A DNA stretch of 64,000 nucleotides from Desmodesmus armatus. Its lineage: Eukaryota > Chlorophyta > Chlorophyceae > Sphaeropleales > Scenedesmaceae. Positions 20,456 through 64,000 of the stretch are shown here, in pieces. Location of the stretch: NCBI GenBank assembly GCA_007449985.2, contig VIIQ02000020.1, positions 620,001-684,000 on the forward strand, given 5' to 3'. A program made the position numbers and the translations under genes. Position 1 is the first letter of the stretch; the number at the start of each line of letters is the position of its first letter. Under the pieces are notes generated by a model that did no database searches, had not been told where the DNA came from, and saw only the letters and a list, made by a program, of their open reading frames with translations.

Positions 20456-23400
20456 TTAGCTGGCAAACGCAGCCTGTACAGGCGAGATCGGCCGCCCCCC
20501 ACCCACGACGGCGCCCACACCCTGTCCCTGATCCTCTGCTGCTGCTGCTGCAGTGGTGGTGCTGGTGCTGGGGCGCGGGTAGCGCCGCTGCATGCCTGCC
20601 ACCCTATACAAGCTCTGTGTGACAAGCTCAACTGGGTCCCCCAGCTGCATTAATGCAGGCAGGCCCCAGCGCTGCTGCAGCTTCTCGTGCACCCAGGCCT
20701 GCAGGGGGGCTGTGCCATCCTTTTGGAGGATGTAGCGGAAGAGGTTGTCGCAGTGGTCCCGCACCTGCCATAGCTCTGGCTGGGCCATGAAGGCAGCGAG
20801 GTCGTGGGCACCCTGTGGGCAACAAACATGGGAAGGAGGCAGGCAGGCACAACATGATGGGTTGTTGGCAAGCAAGGTGAGGTTCAAGGTATCAGCGCGC
20901 TAGGTTGGAGCAGCATAAGCAACCATGCAAGGTCGCAACAGAGGACAGCTCTGGCTGAGCCATGAATACGGCCAGGTCATGGGCACCCTGTGGGGCCGCA
21001 ACGGGGGATTGGGGGCAAAGGATTGGACGGAGGGAAAGCACATGGCGTGAACTAAAGTGTTGGAAGCTGTGCAGGGTGGAAAAGAGCAACCAAGCAAGTT
21101 GGGTGGAGCAGGATCATCTATCAAACCGCTACAACAAGGCTCTGGCCGAGCCATGAAGGCGGCAAGGGTGTGTGCACCCGTTGGCAGGGGGGGCGGCCGG
21201 AGTGATGAACCACATGAATAAATAAGTGAGTGAGTAGGTGGGTGTGAAAGCACAGCAGGGCGCACGAATGACAGGTTGCACCCAAGTAGGTTGCACAGCA
21301 CAGCTCTGGCGGATCCACTGGGGTCCTTCAGAAGGCAGCGGGCGGGGGGGGGGGGGGGGGTGCACTCTATCACCACTCATTCTAGCCGTATGCAGCTGCC
21401 GATCATACAATTGGCAAGGGCAGAGTGTATTCATGATAAACATTTTCAGGATAAGAATTAATGCCGTAATGATTCTTCGCATGCTTCCAATGTTTCTGCG
21501 GGGATGCCCTGTCTGCAATGCTATGGTGCACTGCGGGTGTGAAACAGGCACTGCAACGTAGCATTGGAGTGCCTGTTTCACACCCGCAGTGCACCATAGC
21601 ACTGGAGACAGGGCATCCCCGCAGAAACATTGGAAGCATGCGAAGCCATGGATGCATTTGGAACCAAGGAGGAAGTCACTACAGTACTCCTTGGAACAGC
21701 AACGTCAAAACAGTCCTCATCAAAGCACAATATCACTTACCCTAGCCGAGTGCAGCTGCCGCCCATCTCCGCAATGCACCATGGCATTGGGGAACATGTT
21801 CTCATGCTCCAGCGGACTGAAATCACCACTTGATAGCACCAGGCAGTCATACACACACCCCACACCACTGCTGCCGCTGCTGCTGCCATTGCTGCCACTG
21901 CCGCCCCCACCACTGCTGCCACTGCTGCTGCTGCTGTCAGTGCTGCAGCGACCTGGTAAGAACCGCAGCCCCTCAACTACCGCCATCGGCTGCTGTCCAA
22001 GATCTGGCCTGTCCTGCAGCTCATACAAGACAGTATCCTTACACCCCGCCGGCCCTGCCACCACCCGTAGCTGCTCTGCATTCAAGGCAGCAGCCCAAGG
22101 CTTTACCCATACTGCTGCTGGCCCTGCCGGCCCCTGTAGCTGGTGCACAGTCACCCACAGCAGCTGCTGATGCTGACCGTACTGGGACTGCAGGGCCCGC
22201 AGCTGCCGCTGCAGCATGCTCAGCTTCGACTGGCCCTTGCTACTGCTGCTGCCACTGCCGTTGCCACTGCTGCTTGTGCCGGAATCCTCAACCTCTGCCT
22301 CTGTTTGAAGGCTGAGGAGGTGGGTTATGTCGACGCTGATGGGACCAGAGTTTGCAGGCAGCTGCTGCAGACCGGGGGGCAGCTCCTGCTGCTGCGGCTG
22401 CTGCTGTTGACGGCTGCCAAATGACCTGCTGCTGCTGCTGTCCCTGAAAACATGCCACAGCGGCTGCTGCGGCTGCTGCTGTTGCTGGCATGGACCTGCT
22501 GAGGACTGGGGGTTGCCGAGTGAGGCTTTGACAGCTTGCTTGGGTGACCTGGGCGATGTGGTCCTGCTGCTGCTGCTGGTGCCACGACGGTAGAGAGCAG
22601 CAGCAGCTTCAGCTTCGGCAGCATAGCTGTCTGCTGCATATGCTGCTATGACAGCAAAGCTGCCTCCCCTGCTGTAGCTGCCGACTTGCGGCTGCACCGC
22701 ATGCTGCTGCTGCTGCAGCTGCTTTGGGACTGGTGCTGCTGCTGCGGCCCGTGGGCTGGCGCAAGCACTGCTGCTGCTGGTGGGTCGGGATGCTGCAGCA
22801 CTCGCATATGCATGCTGCTGCTGCTGCTTCCGCCGCGCCTGCCGAGCAGCTGCCAGCTCCGCATGCGGTGAGGTGAACTGCTGGCGGGTGAGCGCAGGGC
22901 GGGCAGCATTTGCTGCTGCTGGTGCTCCTACTGCTGCTGTTGTGCTGCTGCTGTTGCTGGAGGGGCGGGCCTCCTGTTGCTGCTGCGGTTGGCACTGGGT
23001 TTGCTGCCTACTGTGAGAGGCAGCAGACAGCATGCGGGCTCGATGCTGGCGAATCTGAGCATGTGGGGTAGCAAACTGCTGCTGCTGCTTCAGCGATGCG
23101 TTTAGATGAGGGACCTGCGAACCCTGCTGCTGCAGCAGGTGGGCTGACAGCTGCTGTGGTGACTGTGATGGTTGCAAGTGCTGCTGCTGGGCTAGGCGCG
23201 GTACCCAGGTTTGGGGTCTGCGTGGGCCCTGGGGTCTGCTGCTGCGTAATACTACTTTGGAAGAGGGCTGCCCAGGCCTATTCCCATGCGTTTGAGGGGA
23301 TCTGAAAGCTGGGTTGCTGGCGGGGCCCATGGCTATGCTGCCCTGGCACAACAAACACTGCCAGGAGGGTTCGGTACCTAGCAGTCGTGCTGGAGGCCGC

Positions 23401-23456
23401 AACAGGAGGCTGATGCTTCTAACTGGAGATCCTATGCGAGCCACAACCTTGAGCAT
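20456..23456 (-). CDS. Gln/Ser/Ala-rich protein of unknown function, possibly organelle-targeted
   Basis: Two exons: 23456-21741 and 20812-20456 (about 690 aa), joined in phase 0 across AGG|GTAAGT and CCCACAG|GGTGCC. The open frame extends upstream to a stop near 23,640 without another ATG, so I chose the ATG at 23456. It gives a basic, acid-free leader (MLKVVARIGSPVRS, then LLLRPPARLLG) resembling a mitochondrial or plastid presequence. The middle is poly-Gln/Ser/Ala with a repeated motif QQF(A/T)(T/S)PHA. The conserved-looking part is C-terminal: LLWVTVHQLQGPAG, VLYELQDRPDLG, CLVLSSGDFSPLEHENMF, then across the intron GAHDLAAFMAQPELWQVRDH and LFRYILQKDG. I do not recognise the family. Its intron (20,813-21,740) holds echo copies of both flanking exon ends and a long hairpin. 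It is head-to-head with the makorin gene. Confidence 0.72.
20945..21401 (-). repeat. Exon-edge echoes inside the Gln-rich gene intron
   Basis: Minus-strand copies of the exon 2 start (GAHDLAAFMAQPEL) with its upstream acceptor occur at about 20,947-20,993 (GAHDLAVFMAQPEL), 21,138-21,182 (GAHTLAAFMARPEP) and, decayed, 21,300-21,335 (PPELCC). A copy of the exon 1 end (RQLHTAR for RQLHSAR) lies at 21,381-21,401. A poly-G run sits at 21,343-21,360. Confidence 0.8.
21475..21645. ncRNA. Long near-perfect hairpin carrying a fragment of the host gene's exon
   Basis: Arms 21,475-21,556 and 21,564-21,645 are reverse complements with about three mismatches over 82 bases; the loop is 7 bases. The arm segment 21,516-21,536 matches the Gln-rich gene's own exon (minus strand of 21,769-21,789) at 19 of 21 positions. 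The structure fits a pre-miRNA or inverted-repeat siRNA source, but transcription and processing are not shown. Confidence 0.6.
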
Positions 23457-23833
23457 GAAGGAGCCAGCGTGGCAAGAATGTTGAGGCAGATCTCTGTGCT
23501 GCTCTGCCTGTTCAGAAAAAGGAGACGCAAGCAGGGAGCAGGATGCGTTCAGTTGATTTCCTGAGGTTACGCTAGACTGAAAGTCCCCTGCCGAGGCACG
23601 ACCCACCGCACTTGGGGCGCAAGGCCTTGCCTAGGGCACAAGGTGAGGTGAGGTAAGGGTAGGGAACAGAGTCGCACATACAGTGAATCGGACATAGTAG
23701 CACTGAACGTGTATTCCTCTGCAGCACCTGTCGTGTCCGAAGCAGTTTGCTTACTTTATCGGAACAGCTTTTTGCCTTGAGAGCACGCCGTGGACGCTGG
23801 AACTCTGCAGTTGTTGAGCGTGTGTAGAGCAGG
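23457..23833. promoter_or_regulatory. Shared divergent promoter region between the Gln-rich gene and makorin
   Basis: Only 377 bases separate the two inferred start codons, which point away from each other, so both promoters must lie here or overlap the 5'UTRs. Purine-rich direct repeats GGTGAGGTGAGGTAAGGGTAGGG occur at 23,642-23,665. No TATA box is obvious. Confidence 0.5.
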
Positions 23834-26800
23834 ATGTCGAGCAGGTAAGCGGTGGCGGCATCATGGCCGCAACAGCAGAGCAGCAGCAGAATGCAGCAGA
23901 TCCTGCTGCTGTGTTGTGATGCATGCTGATCAAGGGGTGGAGGGTCTCCGTAACTCTCTCCGTCCCCTGTTCTTGCCTGATCTGCTCCCTTACGTTGCTT
24001 GCGGCCATCACGGCTCTGTTGCTGGTCCGCTTGCAGCGTGGTATGCAGGTACTACCTGCAAGGTGCTTGCGCCTTTGGGGACAAGTGCCGCTTCTCCCAT
24101 AGCAGGGAGTCCTCAGATGAACCATCCAACGTGAGTATCCACAGCAGCTGTTGCTGCTGCACCAGGTCCACCACGTGTGATCAGAGAAAAGGTTCATGCA
24201 GCAGCGTCTCTACACTGCTTTGCATGCCGCATCAGCTGCAGCACAAGCAGTCCCTACTCGGCTGGGGTCCAGTCAACCCTGCGCTTGCCTGTGACTCACT
24301 TTCTGTTGGCATGTGCTGTGTGTATGTGCATGTGGACAGGTCTGTCGATACTATCTGGCCGGCAACTGTGCCTATGGGGACAAGTGCCACTACCAGCACA
24401 GCAAACCCGGATGGAGTGGCAGGGGCCAAGCAGCATCAGCATCCAGGTGTGTGCGTCCTCACTGCTTGTCATACATGATTACGTCATACATGATTACGTT
24501 ATACATGATTACGTTGCTGGTCCTTGCCAGTAATCAGAGGGTGCAGGACTGCATGCAGCTAAGCTTGGAGCAAGCTCCTGCCAACAAGCGGCATGTGCCC
24601 AACTACACTGTGCACAACGTGTCGTGTGCTCGGTCAGCTGACTCGCTGCATAATATGGTGTGGTCCCTCCTCATGGTGTGGTCTCTTTTCAGACCTGCAT
24701 GATCTGGGTCTGTCACCTGCATGGTAGTATTGATAGCTATGGCGTGTCTTTCCTTCTGCTGTCTGTCACCTGCATGCAAGCATTGGTAGGCTGTTGTGCT
24801 GCAGAAGTTGACAGCCTTTGCATCCCGTCAACCCTACACCATAAACTATTACTTGCCAACCCCAGCCCCAACCCCAGCCCCTGATTGAAAAGTGGACATG
24901 AACCTGAATGCGATGGCTGCTCAATCCTGTTGGCAATTGCTGCGCTACGCTCTTCTGTCCTGCAGCAACTACAGTGCGCCCAGTGGCGTGCCCAAGCCCC
25001 CTGTGGGCGGCAGTGGTGCTGGAAACATGGTCAAGCTGCCCAGTGGCGCCAGTGAGTTCGGCATGGTCGAGGCGGCGCCTAACTGGGATGACTACATGAC
25101 GCCAGGTGGGCGGTGCATTGGGTGTTGGGGGCAGCCAGACATGCTCTTGCACTATGGGTGTGTTGGTGGGGTGTTGTGCTTGGTGAGGTGGTGCCAGTGA
25201 ATTTGGCATGGTCTAGGCGGCACTAATTTGGGATGACTACATGACACCAGGTCGGTTGGTATTGGTATTAAAATGGCTATGAGGCTGAGCAACCTTTTGC
25301 GCAGCGGGTGTGTCAGGGGATCCCTAGGCACAGGGTCAACATGCAGCATGCATGCGATGCTACCTAGCGTTCCTGTGGTATGTCATGCTGCTCTGCGGAC
25401 CGACATCATATCAAGGATTGCTCAAGGCTTGCTCCCTGCTGGCAGGTGATGCCTCATGCATCGCCTGCAGATGAGGTGGGCGAGATTGACCGATGGCAGA
25501 CCGTCGTGTGTGCACATAATCACATGTATAATCAACCGACTATCACGTCATCCACATATATTATTGTCTCACACCCCTCCCCCTGCAGATGAGATGGATG
25601 AGTTTGAGCAGTGGCAGAACGAGCAGGCCATGGCAGCAGCGGGCGGCGGTGGCCAGGGCAGCGTTGACGACGGCGACATCATGGACCCCGCAGACATCCC
25701 CCTGTGCAACGAGTATGCAGCGACCGGGGGCTGCAGCGCTGGCGAGGAGTGCTGCTACATACATGGCGACCAGTGCGAGGTGGGTGGGGTGTGTTGATGT
25801 AGGTCCACGAAAGGAGGGTGGTGGTGTGTGTGTGTGTGGGGGGGGGGGGTACAATTTGATACTTTCACCGCTGGGCGATACTCTCCACTCTGGATGACTG
25901 GGTAGACCTGGTTTGAATTGATGTGTAGAGAGGTGCGTGACAAGGGGGGTGAAAATCTTGTCACAAGCGCATCCAGACAGGTCCAGTGCTGCTACATAGA
26001 TGGGGACCAGTGTGAGGTGGGTGGGTGGGGGTAGGAGGGGGGGTGCTGTGTATTCAATAGGATGGTGGTGGAAGTTGGGGTTGAGTGTCCAGAAGGGGGG
26101 AGCGTGAAGACACAGCCAGACAGGACCAGTGCTGCCACATCCATTTTACCATGCGGTGTGTGGGGTGTGTGGGTGCTGTCGGTTCAGAGAGAGAAGGGTG
26201 GCCAAGGGGTTTGTGAGTGTGTTGGGAGGGGCGCAGACAGCATATTGTACACACGTTCAGGGAGGACCCCGTTGTTTGGGGGCTTTCCGGTGGCAAAACT
26301 CTTATGAAAAGGTCACATAGGCGCCATGGCTTTGGATGGAAGGCAGGCAGGCATCGCAATGCAACCGTCGATGAAGGGGCTGGCAGGGCTAGTGTGTCAG
26401 GCTACACAACCATCACATGTTTGAGGTATCAGCCTCACTGCAGTGAGGCTGATACCTCAAACATGTGATGGTTGTGTAGCCTGACACACCAGCCCTGCCG
26501 GCCCCTCCACAGACAAGGGATTTGCCCCGCATTGGCAATGCGAGTATGGACCAGGGCACAGTTGTTCCTTCACTGGTCTTCCGCTTCTGCAGAGGCAGAA
26601 ACAGGTGAAGGAAAACCTCGTACTCAAGTGGTTGCACTCACATGACCCACTTCCATCAGCTTTGAGAACCAGCACAGGGGTGGCAGTGCTGCACTGTCAC
26701 CTGCAGCGGAATGGTCACTCCCCTGTTAGAAGACTGTGTAGCTGTTGTGGTTTGGCACATGCTAGCAGATGTTGGGACCGTGTGTTGTGTGTTGGGCAAG

Positions 26801-29800
26801 GTCAGTGGTAGTGGCAGTAGCAACAGCCCCATGCACAAGCTGAATTGAAACAATGAAAGGGGTGGGGCAAAGTGCAAGCCACCAAGCTGCACCATGATCT
26901 TTGCAGCTGGAGGGCTGCGGTGCAAATGATGTGGCAAGCAACACTACCAGGGTCGAAATCAAACCAAAACAAATGGGGCTGTTGCTGCTGCCCTGCTGCT
27001 GCCATTCATTTGATTGCACAGATCTGCGGCTACTTCTGCATCCACCCGTATAACCCGGACGTGACAGCACACCATCAGGCAGTCTGCTCAGAGGCCATGG
27101 CAGCTGCTGCAGCTGGTGGGGACGGCAGCTGTAATGGCAGCGCGCCGGCAGCAGCAGCGCCGGCAGCAGCGCCGGCAGCAGCGCCACAGGGAGGCAAGAA
27201 GGCTGCTGCAGCAGCAGCAGCGGCAGACAGCAGTGCAGAGGACACTGCTGCTGCTGAGGGCTCAGCTGCTGCTGCAGCTGCTGGGGGTGAGGGTGAGGAA
27301 GGCAAGGAGGCTTTGTCGGAGGGTGCAGCGGTCGCAGAAATGCAGAATGGGAAGGAGGAGGGGGAGAAGAAGGGTGATGCTGTGGATGCGGCAGCAGCAG
27401 AGGAGGGGGACAAGGGTGGGGACGGCAAGGGCGAGGGTGAGGCAGCAGCAGCTGATAAGCTTGCAGACAAGCTGGCACAAGCCAAGGTGGACAGCTAGCT
27501 CATGAGGCCTGGCGCTGCTGCTGCAGCGGGGTGAGGCGTCTGGCTGTTGACACTGTGTGGCGCGTGCGTCAGTGTGTGGGGGGACAGCCATGCAGGCAGC
27601 GCTGCTGACGCAGTAGGGTGTGGCGGGCCTGGGCGTCGGCACTAGCTGGTGCGTGCGGGTGTGCTTGTAGGCAGGCAGTGGAGTGCCAGGGTTTGGCGGG
27701 ATGTTGTGCTTGGGCGTTGTAGCATGTGTCATTGCAGTTTCGTGTTGTTTGTATTGTTGCGTGTAGCTTCGTGTTTTGTTTGTGTTGCTAGTAGGCGTGT
27801 GTGGCTAGTGGCTTGGGTACGGCGTGGGCAGGTGTGTGGTAACTGGCTGGCTCACAGGTCCCGGCCTCCGAGGGGTGTGCAGTGGGTGTACCATCAGGTG
27901 GTGGCTGGCTGCCAGTGCAGCCCTAGCTATTATGCTGGTTGGCCCCAAGTGACACTCCGTAAAGGTGGACGGCAGCGGGCATTGCTAGCATATGCACCAG
28001 TCAAGCAACTGTCAGCTGATGTATACCTTGGCAGCACCCGCTGGGGAGTGCCTTGACAAGTTGCGTGGCTGGATGTGTTGCGTGCGTGTGTGCTGCACAG
28101 TGTGCTGGGCGCGCAGGCTGTCGCGATACACCGCATGCTGGGGCACTTGTTGACAACGTTTGACAGGCACACGCAGCATGTGGCGGTCATGGCTGCTACT
28201 GTTAAGTGTGCTGCACAGCAGCCCTCATGTTGGTTGGTACCTCCTGCTTGTCGCCGAGTTGTGTACTCGTGTGTTTCATCATTGGACGTGTGATTGGCTC
28301 CTGCGGGAGATGAATAACCTCAAGGCCTCCTGGCGCCATGCAGTGGAGTGCTGCGCTAGCCTAGTAGTTGGCCCAACTCTGGGAGGGCAGCCCTGTTGCA
28401 CACCTGCTGTGGCTGCCTTCTTGTAACAGATGCTTGTAACAGACTGGCGCCGGTTGAGTTGTAGGGTGTAGCAGCTTGTAAGGTCATGTTCAGCAGCATC
28501 CCTGCCGTTGTGTCGTGTACCCTTGCCCGCGTGTTGTTTCTTCCCTGTTTCCTCACTGTCAATCCATGGTAGGGGGCATGTTTGTGTAAGCAAGGGGCTG
28601 TTTGTGGTTGGTGTATGCCTGCATGGGTTGCTGCAGTTTTTGCCGCCTGGTCAGCCTTCCGTTTCTAGCTGGAAGAGTTGTCAGGGGGCCTGCTGTGTTT
28701 GCACTGCTGTTGGTGTGCATTTGTCCGCATTGCAGTCGTCTGGTTGGCTAGGACGGGTGCTAGGTTTTTGGGGCACTTGATATTGAGGGATGTTTGTTGT
28801 CATCTCGCACTGTAACGTCCCATTTGCAGCAGTGTGTTAAAAATGAAGGAAAGTGTGGCTTCCAGCATGCGGCAACATCACTCGGCTTCCGCTTTGGTGG
28901 TCAGTACCACTCAACGTCGCCCAAGGAGTGGTGGCTGCTGCAAGAGGCGTGCAGGTGTTGCTTTTCTGCTCTCTTGGTGCTGCTCAGCTTGCAAAGTCTG
29001 TGCTAGCAGAATACCACAGCCATTGCAAGCTGAGCAGCAACGAGAGAGCAGAAACAGAGCGCCTGCACGATTCTTGCAGAGGCACCGAGGTGTGGCCGAA
29101 GGTCAAGCAGCGGTGGCCAACCCTGAGCAGCTCATGCGTGGCCACGTCCACCAAGCTATGAAGCACTGATAGTGCAGCTGTCAAGCCATCCTACTGCAGC
29201 TCGTCAGCCTTCAACCGGTTTTGGAGGGACCGTGTGATGAAGGAGAAGCGGCCACATGCGGGGCTCCCTTCGTGGCTGAAGCTGGAAACAGCTTGCTGGC
29301 GCATTCGCTCACACACTTTTGCTGTCCTAAGGATACGGGTTGATGGTGTTCGTCATGTGACGAGCGATCACCAGTGCCTCCCAGATCAAAAAATAAGCCC
29401 GTATGCAACCCAACAACTGTTTGCGAATACTTTGCGGCTGTCATCGCAGGTGTGCAAACAATTTGTCATCGATCCCACTGACGCGAAGAAGGCCCAATCA
29501 CACCGCGACGACTGCAGCACACTAGCGGCCAAGCTCGCCAAGCGGGTTCGAGACAGCAGCGTCGAATGCGGCATCTGTTTGGAGAAGGTCATGGCGAAAG
29601 CAGAGATGTCACAACGGCGGTTTGGTCTCATGGCGTGCGAGCATGCATTCTGCTTGGGCTGCATCCGCAACTGGCGTGCCACTGGAGAAGTCAACGCAAA
29701 AACGGTGAGCTGCAGTGGGGGCAAGTAAGGAGGAATGTATAGGCTTGAGGCGTTGCCTGATGTATCTGTGACAGTGCAGCTTGCAGTAGGATGCAGGTTG

Positions 29801-32800
29801 CAGTGACTCAACATTCGTACATCCCTTGCAGTCTCACTATTTCAGCAGCTCAGCAGTATACGCGTCCGTTCAGTGAATGCTCGCCGTCTGGCGGCGTCTT
29901 TGTGCTCCACCTCATGTTTCATGCCGCAATTTCGTATGATCCCTAATGAATGGTTCGTCGGAAAAATTCGGGGTGTTGATTAAACCAGCGCGAGTGTTGA
30001 TGCAACCACGCTTTAGTTAACGAGGACATCAACCGGGTTGACGAGTCGGTTTAATCAACCAGCACGTCGTCAACCCGGTTGATGGACGGCCAGTTGACGT
30101 CAACCGCGCGGGGGTGTTTAATCAACCGGGTTTGTTTGAAGCCAGTTGACGTCCTTGTTGATATAATCACGGTCGAGTGGCAGGCATATCTAGTTGTTCC
30201 AACCGGGTTGCCGCCAGGCTCTGCTAGACCTTGGCTGGCTCGTTTGCTGCTGCTGCTGCAAAGCCCATTGTGACCAGTCTATGGTGCTAGCAGGCTGTGC
30301 GTATGCCTGAGACGTTGGCTGAGAGCATTCGCCATATGGTGATGCATCAACTTGCAGCAGCTCATGGCTGGGCACAGTGCCAGTCTGTTTGCCATACAGC
30401 AACACTCTTGAGAGTGTCAACTTTGACACATCAGTGCCAGCGTTGCAGAGCCAGCAGTGGTATCACAACATGCCTAACACAAAGGCCAACAGCACTGCTG
30501 AGGTGATCACCAGTTTGTCAGATATGCAGTGCAGCCCTCAACAGCATATCATATGCACATGCATTGCGAGCACACGAGCTGAAGCTCTACCAACGCACTG
30601 CCTGTTACGCATTTCCCGGAGCCTAAGGTCCTGAGAACACAATCAAGAGTTGCTTTGTCCTACTGTCGGATGCAAGAGCAACTGAAGGCAAGGCCCAGCA
30701 GTCAACCACCCTGCTGGGTGCGCACCTGCTGTTGCAACAGTTGCTGTGTCCTGTTGGCACCAGCACTCACGTATCCATATGATCAACCTGCTGGGGACTT
30801 GATATTTCTGAAAAATAGCACTTATGTGAGCAGAATTAGTGGGAGGGGCAAGATTCGAATCTGTGTTATCCCTGCATTCAGCGTGCCTAAGGCCAGGACT
30901 CTGCCGTTTGTGTGAAACGGCAACAAGACATGGATGTAGAATCTTGTCACCTCTGCGACCCAACATATGTGCCAGCCATGACCTGACAGTCTGCAACATC
31001 AGCCAGAATGTAATTTGCATGCTGCCCAGGACAGTCAGCATGCACTCTGTCAGCGACATGTGTGCAGCTGCACCTGCATGGCATGACTGCCACCAGGCTT
31101 GCGTACTGATGCAGGCAGGCTGAGAAGTTTAGGTGGGCCTGACTTAGGTATTGCAGCAGGTCATACTGCACTGCATATTTTGTACAGTAAGGGTGACACC
31201 TGCAGCACCCCAGTCGATGTTGTGTGCACAGAATTCTAGGTGGTCTGCCAACATCACTATGATGACAGCAACGCCGTTATGCATGTCATGCTGGCGCCAC
31301 TGTCAGGTGTTCACCCTCAGTTGTTGATGTGGTGAGATGACTAGGTGAATGGCCACCAAGCAATGCTGCCATGCACAAGAACTGTCAAAGCAGCTGAGCA
31401 GGATTTGGTGCTCACGACCTGACGACCTTCACTGTCGTGAATTGCATCAACCGACGTCAAAGGGCATGCAGCTTCCGCGGCTTATGTATATATGTAAAAC
31501 TACGTATGCAGTTACTACAGCCAAGCAACCTTAGCAGCCCACCAGCATGGGCCACGGCAGGCACCTGCCATCGACGGCGATGGGCTGCTGTCACCCGGCG
31601 TCAACGTGCCTGACCGCGAGCAAAAGGGTGTCAAGCAGTAGAAATTGTAATACTTGTGCATCACTACAGCCGATCTGGCTTGACAGCCAAGCAACCTTAG
31701 CAGCATGTGCCACGGCACCGGCGATCGACGGATGTCCACCTGTCCCCCGGCGCTAACCTGGCCTATTCACAGGCATCCTGGCATCAAACAGTAGCTATTA
31801 TGCTGCAGTTTACACTGGTGTGCACCGCCGGCCCAGCCGAGGCACGGATAGGCCGGGAGCAGCACGTCACTCTTTCAGAATAAAAAGCTAATTCTTTTCC
31901 TATGGCACAAGACGTGAAAGTTAAATCTTGCAATGACTGCACATAGGCCTGCATTGAAAGCTGTGAGACAAACCTGACAGCAGCAACTGTAGTCTGCACA
32001 TGTACAGGCAGGTTGCTCATGGCATTTAGGTGCATGTTCCTGCGTCACAAGACTGGCTGATTGTTTGCTTGAGCCATTGTCGTTGTTCTAACAAGGCATT
32101 TCGTCCAGCTGCGTTATGTTCAACGTTTGGTTGTTGGTGAGCTGAAAAAGTGCGCTGGAAGAAGGTCGGTGTGTGTATGAGCAGCATTTCACGATGTCTC
32201 ATGCTTCATACGAGTCAAGGCGCGCTGTATCATGCACTGAGGATCTGCCGCTTGACAGCCAACACCCCGTGCATCAACCCGCTTATAAAAACACTCTCCT
32301 TGGGCGACCGAGTTGAAGCAAGCCACGTCGCTGTCAACCTGGTTTAGCAAAGCGCCCGCACCGCAGGTTTATTCAACGGTCGGTTGAATCAACCGGCGCG
32401 CCAGGCAACCCGGTTGATTAAACACTCTCGGCCGGTTGATCGGGGAGTGTTGATTGAGGCCGGTTTACTCAACCCCCGAAATTTTCCGACGCTTCCCTCT
32501 GGTTTGCTAACCCAGCTCCGTGATATCAGTAAATGCTGGCATGAGCTCTCAAGCTTCATAGCTGCGTATTTAGGTGCACCATCGACAGATTGATGCCACT
32601 GCACACCTGCTGCTGCTCTGCTGCGCCGCAGGCTCTGCGCACGTGTCCCATCTGTCGCACCACCACCCACTTCATCACCCCCAGCACGTCCTGGCCTGAG
32701 AGCCCCGCAGAGAAGGAGGAGATCGTAGAAGCCTACAAGGCCAGCATGGCTGAGAAGGTCAGTATTGCTGTTACACACAGTTAGTTTGTTACTATTGCTG

Positions 32801-34462: not shown

Positions 34463-42305
<7,843 letters not shown>

Positions 42306-42314
42306 GGCCCTCCG

Positions 42315-42475
42315 GTTTACTGTACAGTACACTAAAGTACAGTACAGTACTTTGGGGACAGGGTCCCAACCCCGGCACTAGCCAGCGAGCAAAGGGCTCA
42401 TGAGGGTGCCCCGAAGGGCCTTCAACTTGTCGTATCCCAGTCTCTCAGGTCAGGTGTGGGGGCGATCGAGATCAC
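42315..42475 (+). repeat. Inverted dispersed repeat C, copy 1
   Basis: Landmarks in order: TACAGTAC words, CAGCGAGC.AAGGGCTCATG, GTGCCCCGAAGGGCC, GTCGTA.CCC.GTCTCTC.GG and TCAGGTGTG. The same series occurs on the opposite strand at 46,760-46,905. Confidence 0.8.
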
Positions 42476-43799: not shown

Positions 43800-44308
43800 C
43801 CCTCTAGCACTTTGCTGCTAGGCATCACCCCCTAGTAAGCACCTCCTAAGCGCTGCTCCATCCACAACAGTCGGAAAAGATGGCTGCTGCCGGGGCAACG
43901 CTGCTTGCAGGTCCCACTGCTGCTGCTGCTGCTTGGCATTACACCAGTCAGCCCGTGCAAATCGCCGCTACCTTCATACAACAGTGGGAATGCAGCTGCT
44001 GCTGCTGCTGCGGTGCTGGGGCGAACCACCAGTGATGCTCGCAGGTCCCACCAACCAAAACCCTTCAATCACTCATGTCATCGTCCAAGTGGTGCTCTGG
44101 CGGGCTGTTGCACGAACATTACACCGGTCAATCAAGCATCACGCCACCAACCTATCGAGCGCTGCTGCCGCTGCTGCTGCTTAGCATCACACCAGTTAGC
44201 ACCTGCAAAGCGCTGGTAATCCCCACAACAGTGGGGCTGCTACTGCTGCAGCTGTTGCTGCTGTGCAGATCACCAGTGATGCTTGCAGGTCCCATCAACC
44301 AAAACCCC
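43800..44308 (-). repeat. Tandem copies of the HDAC terminal exon end and 3'UTR
   Basis: On the minus strand the GAGCACCACT.GGACGATGAC ATGAG.GATTGA end of HDAC plus following TTTTGGTTG.TGGGACCTGC is present at about 44,270-44,345 (true) and 44,030-44,105. A weaker, shorter third copy of the flanking part lies near 43,810-43,870. TTACA (TGTAA on the minus strand) at 44,119-44,123 is a candidate polyadenylation signal. Confidence 0.8.
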
Positions 44309-52494
<8,186 letters not shown>

Positions 52495-55130: not shown

Positions 55131-55500
55131 ACACAAAACTCAGCCAAGTAACCCCGACTGCCCTGTGTTTCCTAGGAAGCCAGCTGGCAGCTAACTGCTC
55201 ACAGCCAGTCCGAGGCGAGGCAAGGGTGGGGCCACCGCTGTGCTGTCAGTGCTTCAGGGCTACGTTGTGCTTGGCTAGCACAGCCACAGTCAACATGCAC
55301 GGGGGAGCCCGACCACACCACCGATATACAGAACATGCTGCCATCTTCAACCCTAAGGATTCCCAGAAAGCCAGCTGGCAGCTAGCTGCCTGCAGCCAAC
55401 AAGTGGCCGAGGCAGGGGCCCAGGGGTGGGGCCACCGCCGTGCTGTCAGTGCTTCAGGGCTATGTTGTGCTTCGCTAGCACGGCAGCCACAATCGACGCC
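55130..55500 (-). repeat. Tandem duplicate of the coiled-coil gene's terminal exon end and 3'UTR
   Basis: 55,145-55,300 and 55,360-55,500 are colinear: AGCCAGCTGGCAGCTA.CTG, GTGGGGCCACCGC.GTGCTG, then CAGTGCTTCAGGGCTA.GTTG. The latter is the minus-strand end AKHNIALKH followed by stop; the copy reads AKHNVALKH then stop. Confidence 0.85.
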
Positions 55501-55593
55501 CTGTCTTTCCTACCCTCACCACCCACAGGAGACCCCCGCCCATCCACTCCCACTGACCCCAGCTGTGAGGAGGTCCCACTCGCCCTGACTAAC

Positions 55594-55624
<31 letters not shown>

Positions 55625-56253: not shown

Positions 56254-56294
<41 letters not shown>

Positions 56295-58582
56295 ACAGCA
56301 GCAACAGCAGCAGCAGCAGCAGCAGGGGTGCCGTCACCAGCACCCAAAGCAGCAGCTGCTGCTGCGGGGCTGCTCCTGCCTGATCTCTGTCTCTGCAGCA
56401 CTGCAGCAACGATTGAGGCCCGGTCAAGACCACTCCAGCCCCCTCCAGCAGCAGCACCAGCAGCAGCACTACCAGCAGCACCATCCCCGCTGCCTGCCAC
56501 ATCAGCATGTGCATGCTGCTGCACATCTTGCTGGTGACTGCGATGATCGGCAGCAGCAGCAGCAGCAGCACCATCGTCAACAATCCTGACTGACTCCCTG
56601 CTGCGTGAACGCTGCAGGGCCGAAGCAATCAGCTCCTGCCGCTGCTGCTGCTGCTGGTCATCTTGCTGCTGTGGCGGCTGATGCCCCTGCTGCTGCTGCT
56701 GCTGTTCATGCTGCTGCTGCACAGCAGGGCCCCTCATCTCCTGCCTCTCACTCAGCCATCCTTGCCCTCCCTCTGCTGCTGCTGCTGCTGCTGCGGGCCC
56801 ATCTACTGCTGCTGCTGGTGTGACTATGAAGGTGGCAGCAGGCAGGGGACTCCAGCTGCTATTCTGCCTCGACCAACGCCCAGTGGGACTGCAGCTGCCA
56901 CTCGACGGCCCTGGCCGCTCCGACGGCTCCGCCATTGCTGCCGCCGATGCCTCTACACCAGCCGCCGACGGCTGCAGAACTGCTGCTGCTGCTGCTGGTG
57001 ATGATTGGCCGTAGAGCTGCACTGTGTTGAGCTGGGTGGCCCATGACACCCGGGCACTCCTGCTGCCCCCCAGGCCTCCTGCAGCAGCAACAGCACCATG
57101 GACGGCAGCAGCAGAGGGTGTGCAGCGTTGCATGTCAGCGATATACACACAAGCACACATACATCGTGTGTCGACAGAGGGAGTACTTGGATACATGCAA
57201 GCACACTAAGGCTGTCCTACTAGATAGGCAAGCAACAGTGACGTAATCCCTCAGTACCGAACAGTGCGTCGGTGGCAGATGGCAACGCTAGACATCATGT
57301 GTGTTAAACACATGAGTTACAACCATCAAGTGCATGTCATGATGATAGGCTTGTGTGTGGCTCATGTTGAATACACACTTGCAGACCCTCCCAGTTCCCT
57401 GGCCCCCAAGATATGCGACACCCACACCAAGAGATCACGCCCTATTCCAGCAGAAAGCTTACCCTGTCTAATCACATTGACGTTGACTCCACCAAAGCCG
57501 TCGCCACCAGCGCCAGCATCGCCACCAAACGCCATCCAGCCACCGCCACCACCACCACCACCACCAGCAGCACCACCAGCAGCACCGTCACCACCATCAG
57601 CAGCAGCAGCAGCAGCCACAGTGCTGCCAAAGGATGCAGAGCTGCCACCCCTCCCAGAGCTGCCAGTCATTTTAGAAAGGCTCGGCTCACGCAGAGAGCT
57701 CACCCTACCGCTGCTGCTGCTGTGGTCACCCCTGGCCGTCATCGCCTCCTCTCGCTGCTGCTGCTGCTGCTGCCCCGGCGGCGACGGCGGCTGGAACTCT
57801 TGCTGTAGCTGCTGCAGCTGAAGCAGCGGCACGCTGCGGCGGCTGTCGCGCTGACTGCCTGACAAACCGTCACCCGCTGTTGCTGCTGCTGCTGGTGCTG
57901 CCGGTGTGTACTTTGCTTCTGCCAGCTGGGCCCTCAGATCTGCAGCCTCATCAAGTAGCCGGGTTAACTCCTGCAGGTGCGGCAGGCAGACACACGCACA
58001 TGTAGCATGCGACGTTACGATTGCATGTTGCAGACTCATCGCCAGGTGTTTGTCCCGCAGGCGGGCGCGTACGCGCAGATAATTTGTGTTACCAGCAAGC
58101 TACCTCATGAATAATGCACATCATCAGTACCCAATGACGCACCAGCAGCAGTGCAATGTTCTGTGCATTTATCTTTTTGGCCGCCGCCCTCGTCCACCAG
58201 CTGGCCCAACAGCACCTCACGCTCCAAACGCACCCGCTTAGCCACCCAACCACAGTGCCTGGCTTACGTATGAAAATACGAATACCGAAATTGCAGGGGT
58301 TAACCCTCTTCCCCGGCACTAGCCAGCCAGCAGATCTGCTCATGGGGGTACACATACTGACATTCGAAAGTGGAGGACATAGCGGGCGCAGTCAAAAACA
58401 AAGGCAAAGAGGCATGCACACGCACCTGCAGTAGTGCCCTGTTTTTGGCATCCAGCTCCTCCACCGCCGTCCTGTCCACCAACTGCCCCAGCAGCACCTC
58501 ACGCTCCACACTCAGCTGCCTCACAGCAGCCAGCGCCTCAGACAGCAGCAGCCGCAGCTGATCAGCCTCCCGGCGAGCCTCA

Positions 58583-58616
<34 letters not shown>

Positions 58617-61600
58617 AAGGCGTGTCAGCCACCGCTGCCGCTGCTGCTGCTGGTGCGGAGTGACTTCCTGGGGGTGGTGACGATACCCGTTTCTGCAGGC
58701 CATGGCGAGACACCTTGCTGCTGCTGCTGCCCGGCCCACCGGACCTAGCATAGCTCTTGTCAGCAGCAGCAGCAGCGGCGGCGGCGGCCACCTGCTGCTG
58801 CTGCTGCTGCTCGAACCTGCTGGCCAGCACCGCTGCGTGCTCCTGCTGCAGCCGAGCCAGTGCCTGCAGCGCCTCCAGCAGCTGCTGCTGCTGCTGGCTG
58901 ATCTTGTCCCGCTGCTGCTGCGACAGCACAGCAGCGGACGACACCTGGTCCCTCACACACACCAGCTGACTCACCAGCAGCTGCAGCCTCTGCTGCTGCT
59001 GCTGCTGCTGCTCAGGCTGCTGGCCGTCATAGTGCTGCTGCTGCTGCTGGGTGGCGCTCTCTGCGAGTGCTACTGCCAGGTGCGCATTGTCAGCAGCAAG
59101 GCTGACCAGCTGCTGCCGCAGCAGCAGCAGCTGCTCTTGCAACACCCCCTCAGACACCCTCGCAGCTGCTGCTGCTGCTGCTGCTGCTGCTGCGTCACCA
59201 CACCGCTCTGCTGCATCCTCTGCCGCGGCGTGTGCAGCACCGCCCACCATCAGCGCCTGCTGCTGCTGCTGTGCTGCTGCTTCTGCCCTGGCAGATTCCA
59301 TTTCTGCAGTGAGCTGTGTCGCTTGTGCTCGTGCCTGCAGCAGCTGTTCCTCCACGGTGAGCAGCTGCTGCCTCAGGCTGCTGCGCTGGCTGGTTACACC
59401 CACCTGCCTGCTCAATAGCTGGGCATGCTCCTCGGTAAGCACCTTGTGGGCAGCCTGTAGCAGGAGGAAATGGGAGTAGCCAAGAAGGGGGGGGGGAGGG
59501 GGGGGGAGGAAGGTCAGGCACTGGGTATGGGCAGACATGGGGTTGGCTGGTCACACCCGCCTGCCTGCTCAGCAGCAGGGCATGCTCCTCAGCACCTTGT
59601 GGGCAGCCTGGGAACAAGGGGGAAGGGGAGTAGCCAAGGAGGGGTTGGGCAATCATCTAGCCTCACTCACCATGAGGTGTCCATGCTGCTGCTGCAGCTC
59701 CCCATATGCCTCCTGCATTTCCTGCAGATCAGCAGCAGCAGCAGCCTTGCCCGCTGCCGCAGCCTCCGCAGCAGCTGCAGCAGCCTCCGCTGCTGACTTT
59801 GCCTCCCTGCTGGCTGCCTGCAGCTGCTGTGTGTGGCCAGTGAAGGGCTGCAGAGCGGAAACAAGCTCAACGCCGACACCAGAAACTGCGGGGCCTGGGA
59901 AAAGGTAAGTCAGCATGCAGCGCAGGGGCAGGACAGAAGAATGCACGCAGTTGGTGACTTGCTTATCAGTGTATCCGTGTGGCCTTTGAAGTGCTGCAGG
60001 ATGGGAAACAAGCTCCAGGCTGACACGAGAGACTGCGGGACCTGCGCAGAATCACACAACATGCAGGGAAGGGGCAGGACAGAGGCATGTGCGCAGATGG
60101 TAACTTGCGTGTCAATGTGCCCATGTGGCCTGTGAAGTGCTGCAGGGTGGAAACAAGCTCCACACCGACACCAGAGACTGCAGGGCCTGAAAGCACAAGG
60201 TGCAGGGGCAGGACAGAAGCAGCAGCGGCAAAAGAATGCGTGCAATTGTTGACTTGTTGCGTATTGATGCATCTGTAAGGCTTGTTAGGTGCGCAAGGAC
60301 TGGTACAAAATCCATGCCGACACCTGAGACAGCACGGCCTGCGCAAAAGCAACCAATGCGCAGTAGAAGGGCGAAAACACCACAGCACAGCACAGCACAG
60401 CACAGCAAGCGCAGTCAGCCACTGGCAACGCACACCATCGCTGCATGTCAACGCCCCAGCTCACAAGCTGCCCCTGCAGGGGCCGCTGCTGCTGCATAAC
60501 CCCGCATGTAGACCTCAGCTGCGCAACAGCTGCTGCAACAGCATCACTGCCCTTACAGAGGAATGCAGGCTTGCATGGCCAGGCACACTGCAGCCCCTGT
60601 GTAGGGCCGACACCCGCCACCCACTACAAGTGCAAACAACACGTTCACCCCCCACCCCCCCCCTCTGCTTGCGATCCGGACGCCCCAGCTGCGACGCGGC
60701 AGCGATCTGACGGTCTGCCCTCATGCCCGCCCTCTGCAGCCGCCGCCGCCGCCACTGCTGCAGCCGCAGCTCTCACAGATGACAACATGCCAAGTTGCAG
60801 CTCTCCCCATATGACCCAGCAAACACCCGGCACCCACTACAAGTTGCAACACCACACCTTTGCCCGCCAACACCTTCTCGGCTCACCATCGGGGCGCCCC
60901 AGCTGCGACACTGCAGCCATTCTGCCCTCATGCCCGTCCTCTGCCGCCGCCGCAGCGGCCACTGCAGCAACCGCAGCCCTGACAGATGACAGCCGGCTCG
61001 TTCGGCTAGGGGAGCAGCTGCCTCTGAGGATTGCTGGTCCCAGCTCGTCATGGAGGTCCACGATCTGCTCGTTTGCGTCTTGCAGGTGGGCCAGCAGCTG
61101 CCGCCGCTCCGACTGCAGGCGAGCCACCTCATTTGCCAAGCCATCTGTTGGCATAAGGAGACGTGGTGGCAAAAGAAGGGATCAGGAGAGGGTGGGAGCG
61201 CAAAGGGGAGGAAGGCAGGAAGGCGACACGACTGACTGAGGCCAGCAAAGCCCCCCCCCCCCTCAACCTGCACCTGAACCCTCAACCCCTGCCAGTGCCG
61301 CTCAGACCGATATTCTGAAAGACTGCCAGGCATTCAGATTTGGTTAGAGAAAGGACCCCGTGTGACCAGCAATTGCAATCATCACGGCCCCACCGCAGCC
61401 TGAGCTACTTACCTCTTTCCAGCTTGCTGGCCTCCAGCTCCGCCCCAACCATTCACTTCAGATTGGTCTGTGAGTGGCAAAGGTCGCGGCTTTGCAGGCA
61501 GGTTGTGGCATTTGTTTGCCTCGTTCTGGCTTGGGGCCTTCCTGCCTTCCTCCCTCACCACATCCCCCACTCATCACGTCCCCCACCAAAGCCCTAGCCA

Positions 61601-64000
61601 CCCACCTCTCTCCTGTTTGCTGGCCTCCAGTTCCGCCCCAACCTCCTTCATCGCCCGGTCATGCTCCTGCAGCGCCGCCAACCCTGCTGCTGCTGCAGCT
61701 GCCTGTGCCGCTGCTAGCGCATCCCGCTGCTGCTCCAGCTGCTGCTTCAGCCGGTCTGTGCAGCCTCTGCCTCCCTGCTGGTGCGCAGCGCTTCACGCAC
61801 AGCAGTCTGAAGCATGCGGGGCAGGGGGCGGTTTGGGGGGGTATGCAGTTTGATGTTGGTGTGTGGGGGTGCATGGGTAGACACAGGGTGTGCATGTGTT
61901 AGCACAGGGAGTACTTGTGTAGCTAGCACACTATGAACATGCAAGTGCATGTGTGTATGTTGTAGTGGATGTGTGCAGCCTCTGCCTCCCTGCTGGTGCG
62001 CAGTGCCTCACGCACAGCAGTCTGCAGCATGCAGGGCAGTGGACGGGATGAATGGGGGGAGGGGGTGTCAGTTCCTGAGCACACCTGCGGTTTGTGTGTT
62101 AAGCAGAGAGGTTACAAGTATAGCTAGCATGTAGGCAACATGTGTGTATGTGATGGCGAATCTATGCAGCTTCTGCATTCCTGCTGGTACGCAGCGCCTC
62201 GTGCGCAGCGATTTGCGGTGGCTGCAGGCAAAGCACAAACAAGCTCTTGCGCTGGAGTGGAGCAGAACCTCAGGGAGAATCGTGGCCAAGGTGGGCTGAA
62301 GGGGCTGAAGGTGCTCAGAAGTCAACCACGAGGGTAGTGCATGAATGCATGCCCATCCACCCACCCATCCACGCCCGCATGCAGACCCACAGTGCCATTT
62401 CACTCCCCAGTGACCCACGTACAGTTACAGTTATAGTGATTGGCTCAGCAAAAAGCTGAACAACCCCCAAGGCAGCTAGAGGCTCATGGGGGACCAAAAA
62501 AGAAACCAGGCACCTCCGCAACAGCATACACATACACACCTGTGCCAGCTCCCTCAGTCGCTCCAGCTCATCAGCCGCCAGCTGCAGCTGCTGGTTCCTG
62601 GCAGCCAGGGAGGCGTGCGCCTCAGCCAGCGCCTCACCGCTGCTGTCGGCCTTGGCAGCGCGCGCACGCAGGTGGTGCGTCTGGGACTCAAGCTCTGGGG
62701 GGGGGGGTGGAAGATGTGATTGGTGGGTGAGTGTGGGGGGGGGGGGTGGAAGATGAGATCAATGGGGTGCAGGGGAGGGAGCAGTGAGAAACGGGTGAAG
62801 GGGACGGGCCGGTGAGGTGGGGTGGAGGTGGTGCGTCTGGAGCTTTTGAGGGTGTGTTTGCAGGGGGGGGGGACCGTGGTGGAGAAAAATGTGGTGGTGG
62901 CAACAGCGGTATTGGGGTGGGCCGACAGCAGCAGCAGTCACTGTGAACCAAATCATGCAGGGGCGCAATTGGTACAGAAGCAGGGCCGGCTATTGCAGTC
63001 CTCCCTCCATCATGGTCTTCATCAATACACTGATCAACATGCACGCACAACATATGCGCACCACCCCACTCACAGTCATAGCCTCCAACCCCCCATAGTC
63101 TGGATTTTTCAAAACACCAGGAGCCACCCCACCAACCACCACAACACAACACAACTTGACGTGACGTCACACTACAAGACACCACACCAAGGCCCACCCC
63201 ACAGCACCCACCCACAATCGTGCATGAAAGCTTCCCTCCCTCCCCAACTGTGATCATAGCCTTCAGCTCCTTTATCGTCTCAGCCTGGCCTCTATCACCC
63301 CCTGCAGCTCCCACACCTGTACACTTCTTTGCAACCACCACACCACGCCACACCACGCTACATAAAACCACACCACACTACACCAACCCCACCGCATCTC
63401 ATCACACCACCCACCCAAACATGTGGACGCCCTCATGCCCTCCCCCCCCCCCCACACACACACACACACCTGTGATCATAGCCTTCAGCTCCTTTATCGT
63501 CTCAGCCTGGTCCTCAATGACCCCCTGCTGCTCCTGCACCTGCACCGCCAGCTGCTGCTGCGCACTGCACCACTAAAGTCACAGCTTGCAAACATTATCG
63601 CTGGATACTTGAAAACACCAGAAGCCACCCCACCAACCACCGCAACACGTCACACTACAAGACCCCACACCAGTCCCACCCCACACCACCCACCCAAAAT
63701 CGTGCACGCCAACACGCCCCCCTCCCACCCCACACACACACACCTGTGATCATAGCCTTCAGTTCCTTTATCGTCTCAGCCTGGTCCTCTATGACCCCTG
63801 CTGCTCCTGCACCTGCACCGCCAGCTGCTGCTGCGGCACCAACGGCAGCCCATGAGTGACACCAGCCCCACGCCGCCCCCTGGGGCTCACACTCGCTGGA
63901 CCCCTGCTGCTGCTGCTGCAGGCAGCAGCAGCAGCAGTAGCCCTGGTACCGCCAGGCGAGGGGCTGCTGCTGCTGTGGTGTAGGTGGTTACGTGGGCTGC
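55446..64000 (-). CDS. Large Ala/Gln-rich coiled-coil protein, 5' end beyond the window
   Basis: Probably a cytoskeletal, Golgin-like or centrosomal scaffold; no motor or enzyme domain is visible. Well-phased exons from 5': an ELKAMIT exon in 63,470-63,830 (copy ambiguous), 62694-62540, 61806-61606, 61144-60887, 59885-59671, 59454-58426, 57970-57463, 57078 to about 56,400, with the last stop at 55,446-55,448. Heptad-rich segments include VIEDQAETIKELKAMI, LAARNQQLQLAADELERLRE, LANEVARLQSERRQLLAHLQ, KVLTEEHAQLLSRQ, LRLLLSEALAAVRQLSVERE and ELTRLLDEAADLRAQLAEAK. The C-terminal third is poly-Gln/Ala/Gly with three copies of a DRA(S/A)IVAAV(L/M) motif (near 56,430, 55,715 and 55,480). Exon 61806-61606 needs one extra base near 61,755 to join AVREALRTSREAEAA to DRLKQQLEQQRDA. 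The exon structure between 56,400 and 55,450 is unresolved. Confidence 0.82.
58090..58250 (-). repeat. Echo of the 58,426-59,454 exon 3' end
   Basis: Minus-strand GAGGTGCTGTTGGGCCAGCT ... ATTGCACTGCTGCTGGTGCG repeats the real exon end EREVLLGQLVD ... NRALLQ|GTGCGTG, with one frame slip. Confidence 0.85.
59490..60345 (-). repeat. Echoes of coiled-coil exon starts
   Basis: 59,545-59,612 repeats the start of exon 59,454 (with acceptor). The start of exon 59,885 (GCAG|TTTCTGGTGTCGGCGT to GGCCACA) recurs at 59,981-60,045, 60,127-60,190 and, decayed, 60,280-60,345, each with CCTGCAG-type acceptors in the first two. Confidence 0.9.
60608..60790 (-). repeat. Echo of the 60,887-61,144 exon 3' end
   Basis: The Ala-rich exon end (SSVRAAVAAVAAAAAAEDGH EGR) is repeated as SSVRAAAAAVAAAAAAEGGH at 60,700-60,790, and the intron sequence after it (CACCCACTACAAGT.GCAACA) is copied too; period about 215 bases. 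Confidence 0.85.
61960..62230 (-). repeat. Echoes of the 61,606-61,806 exon 5' start
   Basis: Minus-strand GCAG|ACTGCTGTGCGTGAGG ... AGGCAGAGGCTGCA at 61,975-62,032 and a weaker copy at 62,165-62,222 precede the real start at 61,806. Confidence 0.88.
63235..63835 (-). repeat. Three tandem copies of an exon end (VIEDQAETIKELKAMIT)
   Basis: Copies at about 63,235-63,305, 63,466-63,560 and 63,743-63,815, period 230-275. Two keep the CACAG|GTGTGTG donor; the leftmost has lost it (CAG|TTGGGG). I cannot say which is the used exon. Confidence 0.9.

What the first reader, a model, noticed from the sequence alone, without database searches (positions are those of the whole stretch)
20945..63835. Window-wide 'exon-edge echo' architecture: intron growth by boundary-spanning tandem duplication in five unrelated genes
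In the Gln-rich gene, makorin, P450, HDAC and the coiled-coil gene, exon 3' ends plus donor are copied into the following intron, and acceptor plus exon 5' starts into the preceding intron, up to five copies, with poly-G/C or GT tracts in the spacers. LPMO and OPR-RAP, in the left part, do not show it. This rule does not match ordinary minisatellites or introner elements. I infer slippage or template switching at G-rich tracts near exon edges. A consequence would be many decoy splice sites matching real ones.
Basis: partly seen in the sequence, partly recalled or inferred. Interest (0 to 1): 0.85.

Follow-up and report, generated by a model that had tools for sequence, protein, structure and literature searches.

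The report
Exon-edge copies piled up in introns
In some genes of a green alga, short tandem duplications that straddle exon ends have left partial copies of those ends, splice signals included, inside the neighbouring introns, and in the best-resolved case the working exon end appears to have recombined with its copies; the kind of event is known, but so many in one place is unusual.

Summary
The window (an unnamed 115.8-Mb eukaryotic assembly, P450 closest to Scenedesmaceae algae) holds 25 local direct-repeat arrays. By my gene models 19 straddle a splice-site exon edge (one with uncertain frame), 3 a stop-codon edge, 2 are in-frame coding repeats, 1 is intron-only. Echoes also occur elsewhere (a UPF1-like helicase, three HDAC paralogue loci, a transporter, and a P450 paralogue with 5 upstream and 7 downstream echoes of one exon), but 8 of 8 compact kinesin genes and 11 of 20 sampled 10-kb stretches have no array.

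Best reading: recurrent tandem duplication of roughly 80-290-bp units. Surplus copies are tolerated when they fall in intron or UTR, and their exon part stays recognisable longest. Of 39 scored echoes, 17 carry frame-breaking gaps or stops, so they are not spare exons. Arrays are mosaic: in the C145 paralogue the working exon's 3' half and flanking intron nearly match echo 1 while its 5' half differs by 26%. The G-tract trigger is not supported in general (per-array junction test P=0.47), though tracts and arrays correlate across loci. Unexplained: exon-echo differences are more often synonymous than a neutral echo allows. New variant of a known kind.

The parts
34725..42305 (+). P450 gene, 12 exons, host of seven echoed edges
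   Evidence: Complete open frame, GT-AG introns; Pfam p450 E=7.6e-59
34979..36021 (+). P450 exon 1 3' end + donor (working edge 35045) and echoes at 35207-35271, 35374-35423, 35495-35561, 35971-36021
38784..38833 (+). Echo of acceptor + exon 8 5' start (working copy 38927-38976), 98% identical over 50 bp
39361..39455 (+). Echo of exon 9 5' part (working copy 39610-39698), frame broken by 5- and 1-base insertions
39687..40719 (+). P450 exon 9 3' end + donor and four tandem echoes (39917, 40159, 40391, 40614), spacing about 230 bp; mosaic array
41276..41318 (+). Echo of exon 10 3' end + donor (working copy 41096-41139)
41491..41545 (+). Echo of acceptor + exon 11 5' start (working copy 41605-41659)
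41871..41948 (+). Echo of exon 11 3' end + donor (working copy 41683-41759)
44914..45038 (-). HDAC: echo of exon 12 3' end + donor (working copy 45155-45279)
46135..46516 (-). HDAC: echoes of exon 11 5' start (working exon about 45930-46044) in the preceding intron
47861..48300 (-). HDAC: four echoes of exon 8 3' end (working exon 48364-48460) in the following intron; one has a stop codon
48620..48667 (-). HDAC: echo of exon 7 3' end + donor (working exon 48822-48940)
25188..25255 (+). CCCH gene: echo of exon 3' end + donor (working copy 25043-25110), with an in-frame stop
25985..26025 (+). CCCH gene: echo of exon 3' end + donor (working copy 25748-25788); a shorter third copy near 26110-26160
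20947..20994 (-). Gln-rich gene: echo of acceptor + exon 5' start (working copy 20772-20819); another near 21120-21180
19791..20695 (-). Terminal coding exon with stop codon and its downstream copies, spacing about 279 bp (stop-codon edge)
43917..44355 (-). HDAC CDS end + stop and its copy in the 3'UTR
55169..55497 (-). Coiled-coil gene CDS end + stop and its downstream copy
58137..63835 (-). Coiled-coil gene arrays: 58137-58514, 59387-59644, 59831-60371, 60610-60991, 61376-61643, 61757-62209 (frame uncertain), 63055-63835
   Evidence: exon models not homology-checked
31517..31760 (.). Intron-only array in the RING-CCCH gene (spacing 166 bp, 73% identity)

Best explanation
In a subset of this alga's genes, units of about 80-290 bp are duplicated head to tail again and again. 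A unit that starts inside an exon and ends in the intron (or the reverse) leaves the reading frame intact, because the surplus exon piece sits inside the intron (or beyond the stop codon) and the original edge can still be used. Intron-only units should be tolerated as well but vanish from view sooner, because both copies drift, whereas one side of an exon copy is held by selection. The arrays stay recombinationally active: exon and intron parts are shuffled between copies, and in the C145 P450 paralogue the working exon's own 3' half, donor and intron flank have been exchanged with, or recently copied to, an echo. Introns lengthen and decoy donors and acceptors accumulate. Shown: tandem units, edge-spanning copies, decay by frameshift and stop, mosaic copies. 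Inferred: the tolerance filter, that splicing uses the original edge, and that unequal exchange or gene conversion is the shuffling step. The initiating lesion is not identified.
For: 25 arrays in the window, 19 on splice edges and 3 on stop codons by my models. 17 of 39 scored echoes have frame-breaking gaps or stops. Whole-unit tandem array in C145, 8 copies. Mosaicism: C145 working copy vs echo 1 differ 17/65 in the exon 5' half but 1/67 and 3/88 in the exon 3' half and intron (P=4e-7); echoes 1 and 3 differ 3/132 exon, 30/83 intron (P=2e-11); window E9 e3-e4 exon 10/106, intron 40/79, e2-e4 exon 17/123, intron 17/88. Visibility: 2 of 11 arrays detectable once exon-derived parts are masked.
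Against: Exon-echo differences are too synonymous for a neutral echo (59 N: 90 S over 22 arrays, null N fraction 0.563, observed 0.396). Intron flanks of several echoes (P450 E9 5', E10, both E11 edges, HDAC E7) show no similarity to the working edge's flank, more decay than plain duplication predicts. After correcting for visibility about 3 intron-only arrays would be expected beside the 11 in P450 and HDAC; none was seen there (P about 0.04, my arithmetic). C145 echo 3 vs echo 5 mosaicism is only P=0.059.
Confidence: 0.6

Rival explanations
1. Edge-directed template switching: replication or repair stalls at intronic G or C tracts, GT runs or CTG repeats near exon edges and restarts inside the exon, so that echoes are made preferentially at exon edges.
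For: A G run lies just before 3 of 4 window E9 echoes and 6 of 7 C145 E9 echoes; CTG-rich sequence follows all 5 C145 5' echoes. Pooled junctions P=0.017. Loci with more tracts have more arrays (rho 0.41-0.51). Window arrays contain tracts more often than random spans (P=0.026).
Against: Counted once per array, no enrichment (P=0.47). P450 introns 10 and 11 have three echoed edges and no G9/C9 tract, while several introns have tracts and no echo. Tracts are copied with the unit, so the correlation is partly circular.
Confidence: 0.17
2. Diverged-template origin: echoes were copied from a diverged homologue (another haplotype or a hybrid parent), so exon differences were already mostly silent and introns already dissimilar when the copy was made.
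For: Accounts for the silent-site excess and for dissimilar intron flanks; UPF1-like exon 12 S: 3 N.
Against: No second copy of the UPF1-like or P450 region in the assembly; the implied silent divergence between haplotypes, about 10% by my arithmetic, would be high.
Confidence: 0.1
3. Echoes are or were functional alternative exons kept by purifying selection.
For: Silent-site excess; amino-acid sequence of several echoes nearly intact; 5' and 3' echoes meet inside exon 9 and the UPF1-like exon.
Against: Echoes are partial exons; the C145 5' echoes have no GT donor at their end; 17 of 39 scored echoes have frame-breaking gaps or stops.
Confidence: 0.05
4. Assembly artefact: false tandem duplication of haplotypes or mis-assembled repeats.
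For: Simple-sequence tracts are hard to assemble; only one assembly was available.
Against: Copies differ by 2-25% with many ages, are partial exons, recur in independent genes on several contigs, and no separate haplotype copy was found.
Confidence: 0.03
5. Introner or other transposable element.
For: Copies carry splice sites and lie in introns.
Against: Each echo matches its own neighbouring exon; two array queries over the assembly gave only paralogous exons and short matches.
Confidence: 0.01

Closest known systems
[quoted passage not shown] content recalled, seen only as a reference in PMC3443670; the paper is not held)
   Same: Local tandem duplication inside genes, often touching exon-intron structure
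   Different: Here the copies mostly stay inside existing introns, several per edge, and arrays are mosaic
Tandem duplication crossing an intron-exon boundary in potato RdRp (PMC4974935; abstract and Results section read)
   Same: The duplicated unit spans intron end and exon start and carries splice signals
   Different: There it made one new intron and exon; here the original structure is kept in the P450 model and copies are decoys
Minisatellite giving multiple splice donor sites in the human interferon-induced 6-16 transcript (title seen in the reference list of PMC2572611; details recalled)
   Same: Tandem array over a donor, giving several donors
   Different: Much shorter unit (recalled as about 12 bp), one gene; here 80-290-bp units at donors, acceptors and stops of many genes
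Internal tandem repeats at exon-intron boundaries of human paralogues (PMC2812944; passages read)
   Same: Repeats at exon-intron boundaries alter gene structure
   Different: There units average 30 bp and many lengthen exons or form novel introns
Introners (PMC9860276; passages read)
   Same: Repeated sequence with splice sites in introns; that paper mentions green algae as a fast-evolving lineage with introners
   Different: Introners are dispersed families that create introns; these copies are local and exon-derived

Membership tests
Intragenic tandem duplication | Head-to-tail copies within one gene | tested here: met
Intragenic tandem duplication | Intron and exon parts of the unit both duplicated | tested here: inconclusive
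   Met in C145 E9, window E9 and HDAC E8, E11, E12; flank similarity not detected for P450 E9 5', E10, E11 or HDAC E7
[quoted passage not shown]
   Echoes lie inside introns of a P450 model whose frame is complete without them; not tested against a relative's intron positions
Mutually exclusive tandem exons | Complete alternative exons with both splice sites and an intact frame | tested here: not met
   Partial exons, 17 of 39 echoes with frame breaks or stops; no donor on C145 5' echoes
Mutually exclusive tandem exons | Used in transcripts | not testable with these tools
   No RNA data
Introner elements | Dispersed copies at many genes | tested here: not met
   Two array queries only
Ordinary minisatellite | Short unit (about 10-100 bp), many copies, not tied to exons | tested here: not met
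   Units mostly 114-290 bp, 2-8 copies, 22 of 25 window arrays on a coding edge by my models; an 83-bp unit in L004
G-tract-triggered duplication | Junctions at G/C tracts or other simple sequence | tested here: not met
   Per-array P=0.47 over 23 arrays; pooled 50 junctions P=0.017

The most novel reading that the evidence does not exclude
Certain genes of this alga carry long-lived, recombining exon-edge arrays in which the working exon edge and its intronic copies evolve in concert: echoes are repeatedly rewritten from, and donate to, the working exon, so that part of a coding exon evolves inside a noncoding repeat array. The arrays at the same exon with about the same 230-bp period in two diverged P450 paralogues would then be inherited, not independent.
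Probability: 0.2. Interest if true: 0.75.

Novelty: new variant of a known kind. Interest (0 to 1): 0.48.

Why it matters
It offers a natural system for two open questions: how introns lengthen without transposons, and how a spliceosome picks one donor among up to eight near-identical ones. Recombination between a working exon and its own decayed copies would also be a route by which introns feed variation back into proteins. It is a trap for gene predictors, because echoes read as coding. One annotated genome with a close relative would give birth and death rates.

Tried and rejected
Neutral-echo test: I expected a neutral model to hold; it did not, and I could not decide between context-dependent mutation, a diverged template and partial constraint. 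It used 22 arrays, one best echo each. Left out: window array 61757, the C145 arrays, and arrays of L003, L004, L005, L025, L029-L031 and the other sampled stretches. The three stop-codon arrays were scored apart (15 N: 16 S; not different from the rest, Fisher P=0.42).

Mutually exclusive exons: considered because 5' and 3' echoes meet inside exon 9 and the UPF1-like exon; dropped because the C145 5' echoes lack a donor.

Shared ancestry of the two P450 E9 arrays: the tree groups copies by gene and intron parts are not convincingly more alike than controls (mean 17.7 vs 13.7), so undecided.

Hybrid or second haplotype: no second copy of two queried regions.

Species: not identified. Literature: eight searches, judged from their listings, showed no description of this in green algae; the library holds open-licence papers only.

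Sampling limits: the 20 stretches are round coordinates on contigs known, not a random draw. The 8 kinesin genes were picked by me from the 121 matches as compact clusters (1.9-3.2 kb), which may bias against long, echo-bearing introns. One of the 23 introns (44420-45203) has an approximate end.

One search's inverted-repeat count was wrong (self-symmetric hairpins dropped) and was redone.

Full report
What was checked. The window is G000:C18:620001-684000 of an unnamed 115.8-Mb, 831-contig assembly. The P450's best relatives are Tetradesmus obliquus proteins at 57-58% identity, so the host is taken as a Scenedesmaceae-like green alga; this is inference. Self-BLAST found 43 direct-repeat pairs, 42 spaced 60-800 bp, merging into 25 arrays. 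I classed these by hand from gene models and translations: 19 straddle a splice-site exon edge (one, 61757-62209, with uncertain frame; coiled-coil and Gln-rich models rest on open frames and splice dinucleotides only), 3 straddle a stop codon, 2 are in-frame coding repeats (6314-6956, 15457-15872) and 1 is intron-only (31517-31760). One search, run on the P450 and HDAC stretches alone, added the HDAC exon 7 echo.

Gene models. The P450 has 12 exons, GT-AG introns and one open frame, Pfam p450 E=7.6e-59; the HDAC model scores Hist_deacetyl E=1.6e-88, with one junction (exons 9-10) that my model does not close. Within these two genes 11 edges are echoed: P450 E1 3', E8 5', E9 5', E9 3', E10 3', E11 5', E11 3'; HDAC E7 3', E8 3', E11 5', E12 3'.

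Is it more than chance? Dropping 11 units of the observed spacings at random on the two genes puts 37% on edges, 61% in introns only and 2% in exons; none of 20,000 draws gave 11 of 11 edges. But there is a visibility bias. With working exons and echo exon parts masked, only 2 of the 11 arrays still show intron-to-intron similarity at E 1e-6. By my arithmetic from these two calls, about 18 intron-only events would accompany 11 edge events, about 3 of them visible; none was seen in these genes (Poisson P about 0.04). So the 'rule' is mostly geometry plus visibility, with a borderline remainder. The stop-codon arrays (19791-20695, 43917-44355, 55169-55497) fit this: any boundary between coding and noncoding will do.

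How general is it? Twenty 10-kb stretches hold 17 arrays, in 9 of 20 stretches, against 25 in the 64-kb window. Three stretches further right on the same contig hold 4, 6 and 4. Eight compact kinesin genes hold none. Of six HDAC paralogue loci, three hold arrays (L003, L004, L005). Exon-edge echoes were read from alignments or translations in a UPF1-like helicase (L018 9018-9985; Pfam AAA_12 on the exon; the name UPF1 is recalled), in the HDAC paralogues (L003 421-756, L004 2465-2728, L005 1595-1957), in a transporter that looks like a triose-phosphate transporter (L030 6712-6950; name recalled, no family search), and in a P450 paralogue. So the feature is real outside the window but patchy. 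In the window it is concentrated at 32-64 kb, where G9/C9 tracts are also dense.

The C145 paralogue. A DNA search with the window's E9 array led to a P450 gene on C145 (read in L042, G000:C145:11501-18000). Its exon 9 homologue has 5 upstream echoes and 7 downstream echoes, the latter spaced 229-274 bp, against about 230 bp in the window's E9 array; further copies lie around exons 3-4, 6-7, 8 (whole exon) and at the start of exon 12. A paralogue on C63 has the exon once, with one weak 41-bp repeat pair in 4 kb and no array at E 1e-6. Whole units align, so tandem duplication is shown there. The eight downstream copies are mosaic: working copy vs echo 1 differ at 17/65 in the 5' half of the exon part, 1/67 in the 3' half and 3/88 in the intron part (P=4e-7 for the 5' half against the rest); echoes 1 and 3 differ at 3/132 in exon and 30/83 in intron (P=2e-11); echoes 3 and 5 differ at 29/129 in exon and 13/106 in intron (P=0.059); working copy vs echo 6 shows no contrast (25/132, 16/87, P=1). 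The window's E9 array looks mosaic too: e3-e4 exon 10/106, intron 40/79; e2-e4 exon 17/123, intron 17/88. Unequal exchange or gene conversion among copies, including the working exon, is the simplest account (inference). Whether the two E9 arrays are inherited or independent is undecided.

What happens to the copies? Of 39 scored echoes, 17 have a frame-breaking gap or a stop in the aligned stretch: as a class they are not maintained as exons. Among changes private to one echo, 43 are N and 32 S, fewer N than about 0.7 expected under neutrality (my estimate); changes separating the exon from all its echoes are 4 N and 10 S. Between working exon and best echo, one per array, 59 N and 90 S were counted over 22 arrays; a model with a neutral echo and a constrained exon, using the observed substitution spectrum, gives an N fraction of 0.563 (sd 0.04) against 0.396 observed (bootstrap over arrays P about 5e-5). 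Restricting to P450, HDAC, CCCH and UPF1-like arrays (15) gives 0.43 (P 0.004-0.01). The three stop-codon arrays gave 15 N: 16 S, compatible with neutral and not significantly different from the rest (Fisher P=0.42). This excess of silent change is unexplained. Intron flanks point the same way: beside the echoes of P450 E9 5' (echo acceptor position uncertain), E10, both E11 edges and HDAC E7, the intron is no more like the one beside the working edge than random flanks are, while HDAC E8, E11, E12 (first echo) and P450 E8 are among the best few per cent.

Trigger. A G run lies just before 3 of 4 window and 6 of 7 C145 E9 3' echoes, and CTG-rich sequence follows the five C145 5' echoes. But over 23 arrays, counted once each, simple sequence at junctions equals background (0.112 vs 0.113, P=0.47); the 50 junctions pooled give P=0.017; arrays 61376 and 61757 were not in this test. 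Tract presence does not separate introns with and without echoes (8 of 10 vs 7 of 13, P=0.38). Window arrays contain a tract more often than random spans (10 of 25, P=0.026), sampled ones do not (2 of 17, P=0.32). The correlation across loci (rho 0.31-0.51) could be cause or consequence, because tracts are copied with the unit.

Verdict. The kind of event is known (intragenic tandem duplication; potato RdRp, PMC4974935, abstract and Results read; the donor-spanning minisatellite of human 6-16, title only). What is unusual is the density, the unit length, occurrence at donors, acceptors and stop codons alike, and the apparent recombination of a working exon with its echoes.

Noticed in passing
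39687-39698; L018 9307-9314; L042 near 3630-3645: Where one exon has both 5' and 3' echoes, the two sets meet at nearly the same mid-exon point (P450 E9, UPF1-like exon, C145 E9; gap of 24 bp in P450 E11; not so in the 1-kb coiled-coil exon). Cause unknown.
   Followed up: partly
21475-21645, 26372-26509, 28930-29086: Three local hairpins (inverted repeats, 78-96% self-complementary) of 138-171 bp, possibly small mobile elements.
   Followed up: no
42322-42458 and 46773-46900: Inverted copies of about 130 bp at 77.5% identity, 4.5 kb apart, beside the P450 end and in the HDAC gene.
   Followed up: no
4170-4496 and 11470-11812: Direct repeat of about 340 bp, 7.3 kb apart, 69% identity; possibly dispersed element copies.
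   Followed up: no
L042 1926-2765: Exon 8 of the C145 P450 stands three times as a whole exon; which copy is spliced is unknown.
   Followed up: no
L004 2465-2728: HDAC paralogue on C827 with an 83-bp unit at 98.8% identity carrying an exon start; looks very recent.
   Followed up: no
47635-46934 (HDAC exons 9-10): With the GT-AG junction that I placed, the HDAC frame misses one base; the donor may lie a few bases downstream or the model is wrong (and my reading).
   Followed up: no
35060-35177 and 35631-35948: Very long GT and G runs in P450 intron 1, the latter 161 GT copies.
   Followed up: no
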